DNA of 40,480 nucleotides from the IMG/VR virus record IMGVR_UViG_3300034407_003474, positions 1 to 40,480 of that record. One strand, 5' to 3'. Shown piece by piece: positions 1,351-36,857 of the stretch (its first letter is position 1; each line of letters opens with the position of its first letter). The notes under the pieces are model-generated. The model worked only from the letters and a program-made list of their open reading frames with translations. It was not told the origin of the DNA and made no database searches. The DNA comes from a virus. The position numbers and the translations under genes were made by a program.

Positions 1351-1489
1351 CCGATCGCCGCGCGCCGCGCCTCCAAGCCCAAGAAGGCTATCCCGATCCC
1401 CGCTGGCATGACGTCGGCGGAGGCGGAGGTCGTGCGCGCGCTTGCCAGACTCGCGGCGGAGCGCCAACATGCCCGCCGATGAGGGATGC

Positions 1490-3124
1490 ATGACCGCCGC
1501 AATTTACGCGCGCTTCTCGTCTGATTTGCAGACCGAGAAGTCTATCGAGGATCAGGTCGCGCGATGCCAGGCTATCGCTATGGCTGAGGGGCTGGGCTTG
1601 TGCCGGGTCTTCTCCGATAGCGCCCTGTCCGGCGCGTCAATGGGCAACCGGCCCGGCCTTCATTCACTGCTTGAGGCGATACGGGATGGCCGGGTCACGG
1701 CGCTGGTCACAGAATCCCTCGACCGCATATCGCGCAATCAGGCTGATCTGCATACTGTCGTCCAGACCGCTCAATATCGTGGCGTCCGGCTGATAACTGC
1801 CAGTGATGGCGAGATCATGCAGGGCAGCCAGGGCGAGATCATGGTCGGCCTGCGCGGCATTGTCGGGGCCATGTATCTCAAAGACCTTGCCGACAAGACA
1901 CGGCGCGGACTGGAAGGCGTCGCCCGCTCCGGCCGCATACCCGGCGGGCTGTGCTATGGATACCGGGCCGTGCCGGGTGAGGTGCGCGGCCTGCGCGAGA
2001 TTGACGAGGGCGAGGCTGAAGTCGTCCGGCGCATCTACACCGAATACGATGATGGCCGTTCACCACGCGAAATCATGAAGGCCCTGATCGCCGAAGGTGT
2101 CCCCGGTCCGCGCGGCAAGCGGTGGGGCCTGTCGACCCTTCTCGGCAACGCCAAGCGCCTCAACGGCATTCTCTGCAACCCGCTCTATCGAGGCGAGCTT
2201 GTCTTCAATCGACAGCGCAAGGTGAAGAACCCGGAAACCGGCCGGGCGAAGATGGCCCCGAACCCGCCGGAGATGTGGCAGCGCTATGAGATGCCAGAGC
2301 TGGCCATCGTGCCGGCCGATCTATGGTCGCGCGTCCACGCCAGACGATTGGCAGGCGCCAGCACACGCCCTGAATATCAGCGCAAGCCGAAACGTGTCCT
2401 GTCCGGGCTGATGCGGTGCGGGGCTTGTGGCGGCCCATTTGGCTATGTCGCACAAGGCCCGCGCTATGGCTGCACGACGCGGCGCAACACGGGGGATTGC
2501 AGCAACAGCCGAACCATTCGGGCCGAGCGGCTTGAGGGTCGCGTTCTGGCCGGGTTGCGCGAACGCGCGCTGGCACCGGAGGCGGTCGAGTATGCCGTCG
2601 CCTGCTATCGCGAGCGGATGGAGGAATTGGAAGGGAAAAAAATCAGGGATCATGCCCGGCTCGAACGCGAGCTCGCGAAGTGTGAAGCGACCGTCCAACA
2701 GGCCCGCAAGATGTTGCGGGCTGGATCCCTGACTGAGTGGATGGTCGACGAGGCCAACGCGGCAGAATTGCGCGCGAAGGAAATCCGGGCAGAACTCGAA
2801 GAGGCTGACGCCCCGTCCGTCGTCCGGCTACACCCCGAGGCAGCGGGCCAATATCGTGCGCTGGTCGAGGAAATGAATACCGCCCTTGCGACTGGCGATG
2901 AGTTTGACTCACGCAGCAAGGCGGTCGCCGCGATCCGAAACCTGATCACGGCCATTATCGTAAGCCCCGGCGAAAAACGGGGCGAAGTTTATGTCGATGT
3001 TGAAGGGGATCTCGCCGCCCTCCTAGATAACCAGGAGGGCGGACGAGATGCGGTAACGCTGGGTGCGGGGGTAGGATTTGGTCGCTACCGCAACACTCTG
3101 CCCTTCAAGGTCATAGCCGGCTGA
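1490..3124 (+). CDS. Large serine recombinase, probable phage integrase
   Basis: A 544-residue serine recombinase. The N-terminal resolvase domain (about 1-150) starts with IYARFSSDLQTEKSIEDQ, where one of the two serines (S10/S11) is the nucleophile, and contains the TESLDRISRNQADL active-site region. A recombinase domain follows (about 160-270, including the GYRAV region). Next come a zinc ribbon near residues 310-350 (MRCGACGG and YGCTTRRNTGDCSNS) and a charged coiled coil (about 380-450) that in large serine integrases controls synapsis and directionality. The start at ATG 1490 has GAGGG five bases upstream; an in-frame ATG at 1469 is possible. Large serine integrases recombine attP with attB without host factors, and a separate directionality factor reverses them; I do not see one here. 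The gene converges on the late operon and lies far from the right prophage end near 40.27 kb. Confidence 0.93.
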   Translation: MTAAIYARFSSDLQTEKSIEDQVARCQAIAMAEGLGLCRVFSDSALSGASMGNRPGLHSLLEAIRDGRVTALVTESLDRISRNQADLHTVVQTAQYRGVRLITASDGEIMQGSQGEIMVGLRGIVGAMYLKDLADKTRRGLEGVARSGRIPGGLCYGYRAVPGEVRGLREIDEGEAEVVRRIYTEYDDGRSPREIMKALIAEGVPGPRGKRWGLSTLLGNAKRLNGILCNPLYRGELVFNRQRKVKNPETGRAKMAPNPPEMWQRYEMPELAIVPADLWSRVHARRLAGASTRPEYQRKPKRVLSGLMRCGACGGPFGYVAQGPRYGCTTRRNTGDCSNSRTIRAERLEGRVLAGLRERALAPEAVEYAVACYRERMEELEGKKIRDHARLERELAKCEATVQQARKMLRAGSLTEWMVDEANAAELRAKEIRAELEEADAPSVVRLHPEAAGQYRALVEEMNTALATGDEFDSRSKAVAAIRNLITAIIVSPGEKRGEVYVDVEGDLAALLDNQEGGRDAVTLGAGVGFGRYRNTLPFKVIAG

Positions 3125-3394: not shown

Positions 3395-3466
3395 TCCGCT
3401 TCCCTTGCCTGCTTGGTTCTGGTAGGTATTGGGCGTCCCCGCTCTGCACTGCATCGGGCTTTAAGA

Positions 3467-3503
3467 CCTAGCTTGCTAGGCCGGGTGGGTTGATCACCAC
3501 CCG
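3467..3503 (+). terminator. Two adjacent hairpins after the integrase operon
   Basis: A short hairpin (CCTAGC / GCTAGG, about 3468-3480) is followed directly by a 7-bp hairpin (3482-3488 CGGGTGG with 3497-3503 CCACCCG, loop GTTGATCA). They lie 70-110 bases after the last plus-strand stop. No good T-run follows, so they may not be an intrinsic terminator. They may be the first elements of the structured region that follows. Confidence 0.35.
3488..3498 (+). repeat. Hairpin-loop motif GGTTGATCACC, copy 1
   Basis: An 11-base motif that forms the top of the hairpin at 3482-3503. The same 11 bases recur at 3782-3792, again inside a GC-rich stem. The central TGATCA is self-complementary, so two such loops could pair with each other. 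Confidence 0.5.
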
Positions 3504-3594
3504 CTGAAATTCATCGGGTGCGGTTTTCCGTATCCCCTGCCCTGTAGTCTTCTGGAATGCGGGCGACAGTTTCGCCAGAGATGGCGTAAAGAGA

Positions 3595-3657
3595 GTGGAA
3601 GGTTGGGGGTTCGAATCCCTCCCGTTTCGGCGGTAGCTCAATGGTAAGAGCGTCCAC
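3595..3657 (+). other. Circularly permuted tRNA-like core
   Basis: Read in tRNA order but starting at the anticodon stem, every segment has standard length. 3595-3599 GTGGA acts as the 3' strand of the anticodon stem. 3600-3604 is a 5-nt variable loop. 3605-3621 is a T-arm (GGGGG, TTCGAAT, CCCTC). 3622-3624 CCG pairs with 3631-3633 CGG as a 3-bp acceptor remnant capped by TTTCGG. 3634-3635 is T8-A9. 3636-3651 is a D-arm (GCTC, AATGGTAA, GAGC), then G26. 3653-3657 TCCAC pairs perfectly with 3595-3599. There is no full acceptor stem and no CCA, so it cannot be charged as it stands. It may be an elbow module inside a larger RNA or a decayed tRNA fusion. Confidence 0.5.
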
Positions 3658-3693
3658 ACCCCGAGATGCTGGCATCGAAGCCAGCCCGAACGG

Positions 3694-3760
3694 TCGAGTT
3701 CGCTACTCGATTAATGCCGGGCATTTGCGCGGTCGGTAGCTCAAGAGGTAGAGCGCGGTT
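3694..3760 (+). other. Second, weaker T-arm/D-arm pair
   Basis: A T-arm-like hairpin (TCGAG, loop TTCGCTA, CTCGA at 3694-3710) is followed by a small hairpin (AATGC, CGG, GCATT at 3713-3725). A D-arm-like sequence then follows at 3737-3754 (TA, GCTC, AAGAGGTA, GAGC). The order repeats that of the better module just upstream. Here the T-loop lacks the usual A58, the linker is longer, and the closing stem pairs only partly (3756-3758 with 3686-3688). It is probably a degenerate relative or a coincidence. Confidence 0.25.
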
Positions 3761-3781
3761 TGAGGTTGACGGGCGGCAAGG

Positions 3782-3792
3782 GGTTGATCACC
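3782..3792 (+). repeat. Hairpin-loop motif GGTTGATCACC, copy 2
   Basis: An exact second copy of the motif at 3488-3498. It lies inside the loop of the 8-bp stem 3770-3777/3796-3803. Presentation of the same self-complementary TGATCA in two loops suggests an RNA tertiary contact rather than a protein-coding repeat. Confidence 0.5.
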
Positions 3793-4143
3793 GGAGCCGC
3801 CCGACAGCCGACAGGAGACACGCCCGAACGGGCAACAGAATTGGGTGGGACACCACGCGGAGCGCTTGAAAGGTCGTGACACAAAGAGCGCCGAAACGGC
3901 CCCCTGATGCGATCCCACCCAATACACACACCGGAGAGAATGCGAACCGGCCACATAACCGGCCATCAGTGCCTCATATGGCACCATGCCGGGGATAACC
4001 GGACAGAAATTCCTTGCAGATCGGGATCAGCACTCCCGCATTTCACGATTGCCACGATCCGCGCCCGGCCTGCGGGACTATCCCAACCCGCCGCCGCCAC
4101 TTCGCCCTCTGCCGGGCATAGCGCCACTGCTTGAAGCGATTGA

Positions 4144-5241
4144 TCAGGCGGCGCATTGCTGGTCGCCGTAGCGGTCCAGAACTTCCAGCATATCGAACCA
4201 CTTCTCCGATATGACCTGCCCGCCCTGAATGCTCAATTCCATCACGCCATAATCCCAGCCGGTTGTAGACAGCTTGGCGTAGTCCTCTACATGGCCGAAG
4301 GGGAGCGCGCAGCCGACATTGACCACCTTGATTTGATTGATGGGGCCGATCTTGGGAACCGACTTCACCACCTTCTTGTGCGTGTGTCCGTAGACGATGG
4401 AAAACGTCGCATCATTGCCGATCTGGTTCTCAGGGTTCTTGCCGCCATAGGGGCGGCCCATGATGTTGAGCGGGACATGCGTGAAGCCCACGCCGTCGAT
4501 GAACAGGAATTCGCCAAAACGCCGGGTCTGCCAGCGGTACTGCTCGAACATCTCCAGCAAGCGGCGATACATGCCGCCTTCCATAACTGGGTGCAGGTTT
4601 TCATAGACCCGAACCCGGTCTTCATGGTTGCCCAGCGGGATATGAAGGTCACAGCGGTAGGTGTCCAGTCCCCGCTGAAACGCCATCAGGGCCATCCGGC
4701 ATGACGCCATGTCATCCTCGAATGAGGGCAGCGCCCGGCCTGCAATCGTGCTGCGGTCTTCATGGCGGCTTACACTGTCCCAGGTGCCGAAGTCCCCGAT
4801 CTGCACCACACGGTCAACCTTGCGCTCTGCGGCCATGCGCCCGAATGCCTCAAAGCGCGCCTTGTCCGGGTGGCGCGGGTCATCATGGGCATCCCCAATG
4901 ACCAGCACACGGATCGGCTCGCCCTCGCGTTCCCTGACGCTTTCAGGTATCGGGTCTCGAGCATTCGGGCTGTGCTTGGTTCCCTTCGACTGCTGATATT
5001 GCGGTGCGCGCCAGAGGGACCAGTCAGGCTCTAGCCCGTATCGTTCGCGGGCCACGGTGAGGCGGGTGCAGAAGCTTTTCGGTGACAACCCGCTTTGTTT
5101 TTGTAAGCGCTTGCCTGCCTCCGTTATTGCCGCCATGCCAGCGCGCGGTGTGGAGGGTGGCGCAAAGCCCTCTTTCAGACAATCCTCGACCAGCGAGACG
5201 GCATTTTGCGCCTGCTCTTGTGAGAGTGGCTTTGCAGGCAT
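4144..5241 (-). CDS. Calcineurin-like metallophosphoesterase
   Basis: A 365-residue protein. The metallophosphoesterase signature is complete: GDAHD (116-120), GDFGTWD (149-155), GNHED (204-208) and GHTHKK (285-290), all binding a two-metal centre that cleaves phosphomono- or diesters. Residues 1-80 form a separate helical region that looks like a small DNA-binding or oligomerisation domain (LSQEQAQNAV, then TEAGKRLQKQSGLSPKSF), so the enzyme may act on nucleic acid. The ATG at 5241 overlaps the stop of the o-spanin gene (TGATG); a TTG at 5244 is an alternative. It is the last gene of the late operon, just before the structured non-coding region. The substrate is unknown. Confidence 0.85.
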   Translation of the reverse strand: MPAKPLSQEQAQNAVSLVEDCLKEGFAPPSTPRAGMAAITEAGKRLQKQSGLSPKSFCTRLTVARERYGLEPDWSLWRAPQYQQSKGTKHSPNARDPIPESVREREGEPIRVLVIGDAHDDPRHPDKARFEAFGRMAAERKVDRVVQIGDFGTWDSVSRHEDRSTIAGRALPSFEDDMASCRMALMAFQRGLDTYRCDLHIPLGNHEDRVRVYENLHPVMEGGMYRRLLEMFEQYRWQTRRFGEFLFIDGVGFTHVPLNIMGRPYGGKNPENQIGNDATFSIVYGHTHKKVVKSVPKIGPINQIKVVNVGCALPFGHVEDYAKLSTTGWDYGVMELSIQGGQVISEKWFDMLEVLDRYGDQQCAA

Positions 5242-5582
5242 CAATCGCCCTCCTGACTGGAGACCAGATCAGCGCAGCGTTCCCGCGCGATAGCCACCAG
5301 AGCCCAGCCACGATCACCCCACGCGCCAACATCTTCGACCCAGCCGAAATAGCGCAGGGCCGGGCCGTAAAGCGGGCTCGATTTGGGAGGGCGGATCATG
5401 CCGGCATCATCGGGAATGGCAGGCTTAGGGTCGCTCGCCGCGCAAATCCGGGGGTCCATCCGAACCGGTTCCGGCTGCGGGGCTTGACCGATCGCTCGCA
5501 GTCCCGTGCAGCTCGCGAGCAGACACGAAGTCATAACCAGGGCAAAGGCCGCTCTGCGGCTCGCTGATAGGCGTCTCGTCAT
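5241..5582 (-). CDS. o-spanin, Rz1-like outer membrane lipoprotein
   Basis: A 113-residue lipoprotein. Residues 1-25 form a signal peptide: basic MTRRLSASRR, a hydrophobic core, then lipobox LLASC with the acylated cysteine at 25. The mature part is proline-rich at first (QAPQPEP), as in Rz1-type spanins. The start codon at 5582 lies inside the i-spanin gene in another frame, giving an overlap of about 160 bases, a known arrangement for Rz/Rz1 pairs. The o-spanin joins the i-spanin across the periplasm and fuses the two membranes in the last step of lysis. A longer frame open to 5738 has no signal peptide and was not chosen. Confidence 0.75.
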   Translation of the reverse strand: MTRRLSASRRAAFALVMTSCLLASCTGLRAIGQAPQPEPVRMDPRICAASDPKPAIPDDAGMIRPPKSSPLYGPALRYFGWVEDVGAWGDRGWALVAIARERCADLVSSQEGD

Positions 5583-35393: not shown

Positions 35394-36857
35394 TCAGTTC
35401 CAGCCGGATGAACCGGAGAGCGGGGGCGCGTCAGGCTTCGTCAGCGCATTGAACGCGCCGGAAAGCACATCGACCTGGTCGTCATGAGCGCCAGCGGGGA
35501 AAACGCACACCTCATCAAGGAATGCGTCATTCCACGCGCCCTTGACCAGTTTCACGTTTCCAGCTTCGGCTTGAGCGCTGACAGGCGTTGCCCGCCAATC
35601 CTTCTTGCCCTTGGTCAGTTCACGTTCGATCCGGGCGTCATACCCGGCCAAGAGCTTCACAATGCGTTGGGGCCAAGCGCCGCCCGTGGCGACCTCGGCA
35701 GGCAGGCGCTGGGCAACTTCCCGGCCATCCTGCGAGGCTGTGTTCTGAATCAATCTCTCAACGCCATCGGGCGAGAGCCGATCCCTGATCACATGCTCGA
35801 CATAGTAGACGCCGCCGACCTTCTTCATGCGAAGCCCTGCGGTATAATCCGGGTCACTGCCCTGCTTGGCTTGCGTCAACGCCAAATCCCACACCCGCAC
35901 GGATCGTCCACCAGCCGGTGCAGCGGGGACAATCTCGAACCATGCCCGCTTGAACATGCCACCTTCACGCGGCGCCGGACGTTGCTGGAACTGGCCGGCC
36001 GTCGCGTAAGACCCCATCACCCGCTTGTCGCGCTCCACGACCTCTCGGGAGAAACGCTCAGGAAAGAGCAATTCACCGTCTTGCGTGCGCGGATCCGTGA
36101 AGCCTATCGATGTGCGGCAAGCCCGATCAGGCTCGAACTCCATCGGCAGCATCAGGTGTTCATACCCAAGTTCACGGGACAGGATCAGGCCGGACACATC
36201 CTTTTCGTGCAGGCGCTGCATGATGACCACGATGGCCGACCTGTCCGGATTGTTCAGGCGCGTCGTAATGGCCTCAGCAAATGTCGTATTGATCGCGTCC
36301 CGCTTTGTGTCTGACGAGGCGTCATCAACGCTCATCGGGTCATCGATCACAAACCGGTCACCGCGAACACCGGTTGTCCCGGTAAATGCGATGGCCTGTC
36401 GAAAGCCGGTCGCGGTCGTCTCAAACTTCTTTTTCTCGTTCTGGTCACTCACGAGCTGGACGGCATCGCCCCACAGCTCCTGATACCAGTCCGACTTGAT
36501 CAGGTTCCGGCATCGCCGGTTGTCCCTGATCGCCAGCGTCTCCGAGTGCGAGGCCGCGACAATGCGTGTATGCGGGCGCCCCTGCGGTCCCATCTCCCAA
36601 GCAGGCCAGAACACAGCCGTCATGAGTGACTTCATGGTGCCGGGCGGCACGTTGATCAGCAGCCGGGTTATCTCGCCTCGACTGATCGCCTCCAGGTGCT
36701 CGGCAATCGCATCAATATGCCAGCCATGCACATAAGGTTGCCCCGGTTCGACAACATGCCATGCACACCGCACGAACTCCGCAAGCGACCTACGACACGC
36801 CTCCCGCTCAATTGCCTGCCAGTCAGCCTTCGTCAGCGTCAGACTTGCGGCGGGCAT
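35394..36857 (-). CDS. Terminase large subunit
   Basis: A 487-residue protein. The ATPase domain shows Walker A PPGTMKS (71-77, preceded by LLINV) and Walker B RFVIDDP (168-174). The nuclease domain shows VRVWDLALTQAKQGSDPDYT and, near the C-terminus, AGAHDDQVDVLSGAFNAL with the metal-binding acids. It drives DNA into the head and cuts the concatemer. Its start overlaps the small terminase gene by 35 bases. Confidence 0.95.
   Translation of the reverse strand: MPAASLTLTKADWQAIEREACRRSLAEFVRCAWHVVEPGQPYVHGWHIDAIAEHLEAISRGEITRLLINVPPGTMKSLMTAVFWPAWEMGPQGRPHTRIVAASHSETLAIRDNRRCRNLIKSDWYQELWGDAVQLVSDQNEKKKFETTATGFRQAIAFTGTTGVRGDRFVIDDPMSVDDASSDTKRDAINTTFAEAITTRLNNPDRSAIVVIMQRLHEKDVSGLILSRELGYEHLMLPMEFEPDRACRTSIGFTDPRTQDGELLFPERFSREVVERDKRVMGSYATAGQFQQRPAPREGGMFKRAWFEIVPAAPAGGRSVRVWDLALTQAKQGSDPDYTAGLRMKKVGGVYYVEHVIRDRLSPDGVERLIQNTASQDGREVAQRLPAEVATGGAWPQRIVKLLAGYDARIERELTKGKKDWRATPVSAQAEAGNVKLVKGAWNDAFLDEVCVFPAGAHDDQVDVLSGAFNALTKPDAPPLSGSSGWN

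What the first reader, a model, noticed from the sequence alone, without database searches (positions are those of the whole stretch)
3595..3657. A tRNA core in permuted order with a capped 3-bp acceptor and open anticodon stem
Seen: T-arm and D-arm consensus sequences occur in reverse order, 12 bases apart. Every remaining tRNA segment can be placed at standard length: variable loop of 5, T8-A9, G26, and a perfect 5-bp anticodon stem joining 3595-3599 with 3653-3657. The acceptor is only CCG/CGG closed by TTTCGG. Inference: this is a tRNA elbow used as a structural module inside a larger RNA, or the remains of a fused tRNA pair. I know of no bacterial RNA class with this exact design.
Basis: partly seen in the sequence, partly recalled or inferred. 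Interest (0 to 1): 0.8.

Follow-up and report, generated by a model that had tools for sequence, protein, structure and literature searches.

The report
Phage YrlA-like Y RNA tRNA mimic
This is a small RNA in a temperate bacteriophage whose tRNA-like fold is written in circularly permuted order, the known design of bacterial Y RNAs; the unusual point is that neither this phage record nor its close relatives show the Ro60 protein that Y RNAs normally bind.

Summary
At 3595-3657 a T-arm, a capped acceptor stump and a D-arm are closed by a 5-bp open anticodon stem; 600 simulated windows gave no comparable hit. The claim that no bacterial RNA has this design is wrong: it is the tRNA-mimic module of the bacterial Y RNA YrlA (Rfam RF02553; structure 6CU1). 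Rfam's YrlA model aligns end to end at 3581-3675 (30.8 bits, E 1.3e-4, below the curated 69). A covariance model built from 53 other phage modules, without the window or its relative, hits exactly 3595-3657 (59.8 bits, E 6.7e-16). A related phage carries the module at the same locus with compensatory changes. Elsewhere such modules sit beside Ro60/Rsr genes (29 of 50 phage records) or in rsr-rtcBA-type RNA-repair loci. The window and three relatives show no Ro60, and only 5 of 190 sampled genomes of the probable host class do. Best reading: a divergent, apparently Ro60-orphan phage Y RNA with a second degenerate module at 3692-3760, probably binding host proteins that recognise tRNA elbows; that function is inferred. 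Side finding: an unnamed covarying two-hairpin RNA element lies about 90 nt upstream and recurs in many viruses.

The parts
3581..3675 (+). Stretch aligned end to end to the YrlA (bacterial Y RNA) model; likely body of the Y RNA
   Evidence: Rfam RF02553 1-114, 30.8 bits, E 1.3e-4
3583..3590 (+). 5' strand of the putative basal (Ro60-side) stem, GGCGUAAA; 3' partner uncertain (AUGCU 3666-3670, or CGCC 3821-3824)
   Evidence: Same 5' strand in syntenic relative L123 (GGCGUGAA, which pairs with UUUCGCC in the free fold) and in Ro60-linked phage Y RNAs (GTGGCGTAGA in L022, L062, L066)
3595..3657 (+). Permuted tRNA-like module (open anticodon stem, variable loop, T-arm, capped acceptor, D-arm)
   Evidence: R1 covariance model built without the window: 59.8 bits, E 6.7e-16, exactly these ends
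3595..3599 (+). Open anticodon stem, 5' strand GUGGA
   Evidence: Pairs with 3653-3657; helix covaries across 53 phage modules and was not selected for
3605..3621 (+). T-arm GGGGG-UUCGAAU-CCCUC
   Evidence: Sequence; R1 alignment
3622..3633 (+). Capped acceptor stump CCGU[UUCG]GCGG
   Evidence: Cap helix covaries across 53 modules; replaced by CACC...GGTG in L123
3634..3652 (+). U8, A9, D-arm GCUC-AAUGGUAA-GAGC and G26
   Evidence: Sequence; R1 alignment
3653..3657 (+). Open anticodon stem, 3' strand UCCAC
   Evidence: See 3595-3599
3692..3760 (+). Second, degenerate permuted module in tandem: good D-arm (3736-3754), T-arm with an atypical loop
   Evidence: R1 25 bits, E 1.1e-5; 22-nt direct repeat of the D-arm, 82% identical; tandem Y RNAs also seen in L249 and L250
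3821..3837 (+). Hairpin CGCCCGAACGGGCAACA shared with the 3' flank of the L123 module; possible 3' end or basal-stem partner
   Evidence: Same stretch follows the module in L123; role inferred

Best explanation
The feature is the tRNA-mimicking module of a YrlA-type bacterial Y RNA carried by a temperate siphophage that probably infects Alphaproteobacteria. Shown: permuted T-cap-D order, covarying cap and open anticodon stem, end-to-end alignment to YrlA, and the same kind of module next to Ro60/Rsr genes in other phages and in RNA-repair loci of bacteria. Inferred: the RNA folds into a tRNA elbow that host proteins recognising tRNA elbows (pseudouridine and dihydrouridine synthases, PNPase) can bind. 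With an Rsr present it would tether Rsr to PNPase, as published for Y RNAs. Because this phage record and its relatives show no Ro60 and few sampled genomes of the probable host class have one, the elbow probably acts mainly on its own, as a docking site or decoy for tRNA-binding enzymes. The confidence given is for the identity; the decoy/docking role alone I put at about 0.35.
For: Rfam YrlA full-length match. Independent covariance model hits exactly these ends at 59.8 bits. Anticodon helix, not used for selection, pairs in 68.7% of cells against 41.8% in shuffles, 0/500; cap covariation 0.83 against 0.20 (partly selected for). Syntenic relative L123 with compensatory changes in closing stem, cap and T-stem and a free-fold basal stem of Y RNA type. 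29 of 50 phage records with such modules have TROVE/Ro60, mostly within 2 kb. Bacterial positive controls: modules beside Ro60-type protein, RtcA, RtcB, RtcR and in tandem upstream of a TROVE gene.
Against: Score far below Rfam's gathering cut-off (30.8 of 69), though operon-linked controls also miss it. No TROVE or Ro60-vWA gene in the window or in the records of L121-L123. 3' strand of the basal stem unclear in the window. Energy minimisation slightly prefers another fold. Only one syntenic homologue keeps the module; L121 and L133 lack it. No expression data; no promoter or terminator found.
Confidence: 0.8

Rival explanations
1. Remains of a tRNA array: T1 is the 3' end of one tRNA, D1 to T2 a decayed ordinary-order tRNA, D2 the 5' end of a third, so the permuted look is accidental.
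For: Order along the strand is T1-D1-T2-D2; many hits of the same pattern in viral contigs are real tandem tRNAs, and tandem tRNA-Asn genes can score 62 bits with R1 (L259). tRNA-like stretches at the integration end of relatives.
Against: No tRNA by ARAGORN or Rfam here; no CCA or acceptor partner; cap closes in 4 pairs and anticodon strands are perfectly complementary at exact spacing; L123 keeps the permuted module with compensatory changes and has no T-arm after its D-arm.
Confidence: 0.08
2. The elbow is one domain of a larger (about 400 nt) phage non-coding RNA running from the upstream two-hairpin element (3440) to the hairpins near 3850-4000, with a function unrelated to Y RNA.
For: Upstream element and 3' hairpin are conserved together with the module in L123; 3540-3960 folds better than shuffles (z = -2.1).
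Against: The upstream element occurs without any elbow nearby in the other two dozen viral loci, so it looks like a separate element; the module itself matches Y RNAs.
Confidence: 0.1
3. A decayed, non-functional Y RNA picked up by the phage from an ancestor that had Ro60.
For: Second module degenerate; basal stem partner weak; no Ro60.
Against: First module is intact in every tRNA-elbow position, and L123 differs from it by paired changes, which points to selection on the fold.
Confidence: 0.15

Closest known systems
YrlA, bacterial Y RNA (Rfam RF02553; PDB 6CU1, Salmonella; PMC11472068, PMC8394870)
   Same: Circularly permuted tRNA mimic: T-arm, capped acceptor, D-arm, open stem leading to a basal stem; length about 95 nt; GGCG at the 5' strand of the basal stem
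   Different: Acceptor stump only 4 bp on UUCG (6 bp in the Rfam consensus); 30.8 bits against a cut-off of 69; no Ro60 gene nearby; 3' basal strand unclear
Phage-borne Y RNAs beside Ro60/Rsr (reported for mycobacteriophages by Chen et al. 2014 as cited in PMC12282133; proposed for Listeria phage CKA15, PMC12282133)
   Same: Same module in a phage genome; same 5' motif GGCGUARA in several
   Different: Those found here have Ro60 close by and most carry a closed anticodon-like arm; the window has an open stem and no Ro60
mascRNA/menRNA (RF01684) and other tRNA-like RNAs
   Same: T-arm consensus; elbow mimicry
   Different: Not permuted in this way; the model scores only 19.1 bits, E 0.41, through the T-arm
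Permuted tRNA genes of algae and archaea (from general knowledge)
   Same: 3' half of tRNA before 5' half
   Different: Those have a full acceptor and anticodon loop and mature to tRNA; here the acceptor is a closed 4-bp stump and there is no anticodon loop

Membership tests
YrlA / bacterial Y RNA | tRNA-like domain with T-arm before D-arm, joined by a capped acceptor stem | tested here: met
   Sequence and R1 model; full-length YrlA alignment
YrlA / bacterial Y RNA | Open anticodon-side helix that connects the tRNA-like domain to the rest of the RNA, conserved by covariation | tested here: met
   5/5 pairs in the window, compensatory changes in L123, covariation over 53 modules
YrlA / bacterial Y RNA | Score above Rfam gathering threshold (69 bits) | tested here: not met
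   30.8 bits; but RNAs in Ro60/Rtc loci score 44-64 and also fail, and none of 50 phage records passes, so the threshold is not a biological criterion
YrlA / bacterial Y RNA | Basal stem formed by the 5' and 3' ends | tested here: inconclusive
   Clear in L123; in the window the 5' strand is kept, the 3' partner is ambiguous
YrlA / bacterial Y RNA | Encoded near a Ro60/Rsr gene | tested here: not met
   No PF05731 or PF25045 in the window or relatives L121-L123; records may be incomplete
YrlA / bacterial Y RNA | Binds Ro60/Rsr; substrate of TruB and DusA; associates with PNPase | not testable with these tools
   Needs biochemistry
Ordinary or truncated tRNA | Seven-bp acceptor with free 3' end, anticodon loop, D-arm before T-arm | tested here: not met
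   ARAGORN and Rfam tRNA negative; acceptor closed by UUCG; no anticodon loop

The most novel reading that the evidence does not exclude
Phages without Ro60 carry a separate class of orphan Y RNAs with open anticodon stems that work independently of Ro60, for example as decoys that occupy host enzymes or defence nucleases recognising the tRNA elbow.
Probability: 0.22. Interest if true: 0.65.

Novelty: new variant of a known kind. Interest (0 to 1): 0.36.

Why it matters
It adds an apparently Ro60-less phage example to the small class of circularly permuted tRNA mimics, and it shows that Rfam's YrlA threshold misses Y RNAs that lie in Ro60/Rtc loci. If such RNAs work without Ro60, they would separate the tRNA-mimic function from the Ro60 tether, which is still unclear for Y RNAs.

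Tried and rejected
Ordinary, truncated or fused tRNAs. mascRNA-like element. Single-sequence folding as proof: not decisive. BLASTN against phage records: weak matches to tRNA T-arms and chance. The serine integrase as a route to relatives: none in viral contigs. The neighbouring metallophosphoesterase worked, but only L123 keeps the module. Promoter and terminator scan: nothing. TROVE alone understates Ro60: L258 and L260 have divergent Ro60 seen by PF25045, so both families were used. L259's YrlA/R1 hit is a tandem tRNA-Asn pair and was discarded. Reading every pattern hit as a Y RNA was rejected: many hits are tandem tRNAs. The 50 records were picked by eye for permuted look, so 29/50 is not an unbiased rate; the closeness of Ro60 to the module is the stronger evidence.

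Full report
Setting. The window is a 40,480-base IMG/VR virus record. It encodes a large serine integrase at 1442-3124, a head-tail gene set on the minus strand (terminase 35394-36857, portal, major head protein, tape measure, tail fibre) and a metallophosphoesterase at 4144-5244. Among the closest tail-fibre relatives are Brevundimonas, Paracoccus and Roseobacter phages, and a 90%-identical neighbour protein lies in an alphaproteobacterial MAG (L133), so an alphaproteobacterial host is likely. The feature sits in the 1-kb gap between integrase and metallophosphoesterase.

Observation. All pieces exist at the stated coordinates. A scan for T-arm followed by D-arm with a closing cap and complementary anticodon strands finds one hit in the window; 600 order-3 Markov simulations gave 18 loose T-D pairs and none with both cap and 5/5 anticodon stem. 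Energy alone does not prove the fold.

Identity. Rfam at an E-value threshold aligns the YrlA model from end to end at 3581-3675 (30.8 bits, E 1.3e-4). YrlA's tRNA-like domain is circularly permuted relative to tRNA (81 tRNA superpositions with PDB 6CU1; PMC11472068), with D, T and acceptor arms, and a basal stem that binds Rsr (PMC8394870).

Independent test. A DNA pattern scan of viral contigs gave many permuted elbows mixed with tandem tRNAs. After removal of most tRNA overlaps, 53 distinct modules were aligned (A2). They were selected for T-arm, D-arm and at least 3 cap pairs, not for the anticodon stem. The anticodon stem nevertheless pairs in 68.7% of cells against 41.8% in shuffles (0/500 as high) and 35-42% when slid. 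The cap helix has covariation score 0.83 against 0.20 in shuffles (partly selected for). Covariance model R1, built without the window or its relative, hits 3595-3657 with 59.8 bits (E 6.7e-16) and a second, weaker place, 3692-3760, with 25 bits (E 1.1e-5).

Homologue. Of three viral relatives found through the metallophosphoesterase, L123 carries the module at the same place (R1 57 bits; YrlA 37 bits). Its closing stem AGCGG/CCGCA replaces GTGGA/TCCAC with three double changes and one mismatch, and its cap CACC...GGTG (41 nt) replaces CCGT...GCGG (12 nt). Its unconstrained fold shows a basal helix GGCG-U-GAAU/GUUUCGCC, an internal loop and the module-closing stem. L121 and L133 carry different DNA here, with what reads as a tyrosine integrase and a tRNA remnant, and no module, so the region varies between relatives. 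L122 ends too close to judge.

Link to Ro60. Among 50 viral records picked by eye as permuted rather than tandem tRNA, 29 have a TROVE/Ro60 gene, mostly within 2 kb of the module. In alphaproteobacterial genomes, R1 and YrlA hits lie beside a Ro60-type protein with RtcA and RtcR (L258) or with RtcB, RtcA and RtcR (L260), and as tandem copies upstream of a TROVE gene in L250. These are positive controls, and those scored also miss Rfam's gathering score. The window and the records of L121-L123 lack both Ro60 domains. Ro60 by either domain occurs in 5 of 190 sampled genomes of the class. The viral records may be incomplete, so 'orphan' is provisional.

Basal stem. The window keeps the 5' strand GGCGUAAA, found as GGCGUGAA in L123 and as GTGGCGTAGA in Ro60-linked phage Y RNAs such as L022, L062 and L066. 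Its 3' partner is ambiguous: AUGCU at 3666-3670, or CGCC at 3821-3824 if the two modules share one basal stem. This is the weakest part of the case.

How it works. Shown: a conserved, permuted tRNA-elbow RNA of Y RNA type. Inferred from published Y RNA work (PMC8394870; PMC7790460 for the repair operon): the elbow is recognised by tRNA-modifying enzymes and PNPase, and with Rsr it would tether Rsr to PNPase. Without Rsr it most likely acts as a docking site or decoy for host tRNA-binding proteins during infection or lysogeny. I found no expression or binding data.

Novelty. The architecture is known. New here are the apparently Ro60-less phage context, the short UUCG-capped acceptor and the degenerate tandem copy.

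Side finding. At about 3440-3505 lies a hairpin (CCCG...CGGG), then AAGACC-hairpin-GGCC-hairpin with a GUUGAUC loop. It recurs with strong conservation of AAGNCC, GGCC and GUUGAUC and with covarying helices in 25 aligned viral sequences (the two hairpins were partly selected for) and has no Rfam match. In L137 it closely follows a TTGACA/TATAAT promoter-like sequence (by eye). Two adjacent hairpins near a promoter recall HK022 put RNA (PMC9378689), but that was not tested.

Noticed in passing
window 3440-3505 (+); also L130, L134, L135, L137, L169, L183, L199 and others: Unnamed structured RNA element AAGNCC-hairpin-GGCC-hairpin(GUUGAUC loop), widespread in viral contigs with covarying helices (covariation score 0.49 against 0.13 shuffled) and no Rfam match. 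Possibly a phage leader regulator such as a put-like antiterminator.
   Followed up: partly
L028, L036, L014, L041, L058, L117 and others (28 Ro60-linked phage loci): Most Ro60-linked phage Y RNAs (20 of 28) have a closed anticodon-arm-like hairpin with a 7-nt loop just 5' of the variable loop, 18 with U33 and a purine at 37, so they resemble a complete circularly permuted tRNA; only 3 of 16 modules without Ro60 do (post hoc).
   Followed up: partly
L021 (- strand), L008, L097, L104, L035, L063: Chains in which permuted modules follow each other (T-cap-D-short stem-T-cap-D), in records without Ro60 where tested.
   Followed up: no
window 3764-3809 (+): GC-rich hairpin (14-nt arms, 86% complementary) whose loop region repeats the GGGTTGATCACC of the upstream element exactly (3487-3498 and 3781-3792).
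   Followed up: no
window 3945-4051; L121, L123, L133: Stretch between the RNA and the metallophosphoesterase, rich in ACCGGCC repeats, conserved at 81-85% DNA identity in relatives with different integration modules.
   Followed up: no
L121 and L133, just outside the metallophosphoesterase: Relatives carry a different integration module, by eye a tyrosine integrase with a tRNA-His-like remnant; L123 has a tRNA-Cys-like 5' half upstream of its module. Integration modules are swapped in this phage group.
   Followed up: no
Rfam RF02553; L249, L250, L259: The YrlA gathering score of 69 bits misses Y RNAs in Ro60/Rtc loci (44-64 bits), while a tandem tRNA pair reached 42.8 bits.
   Followed up: partly
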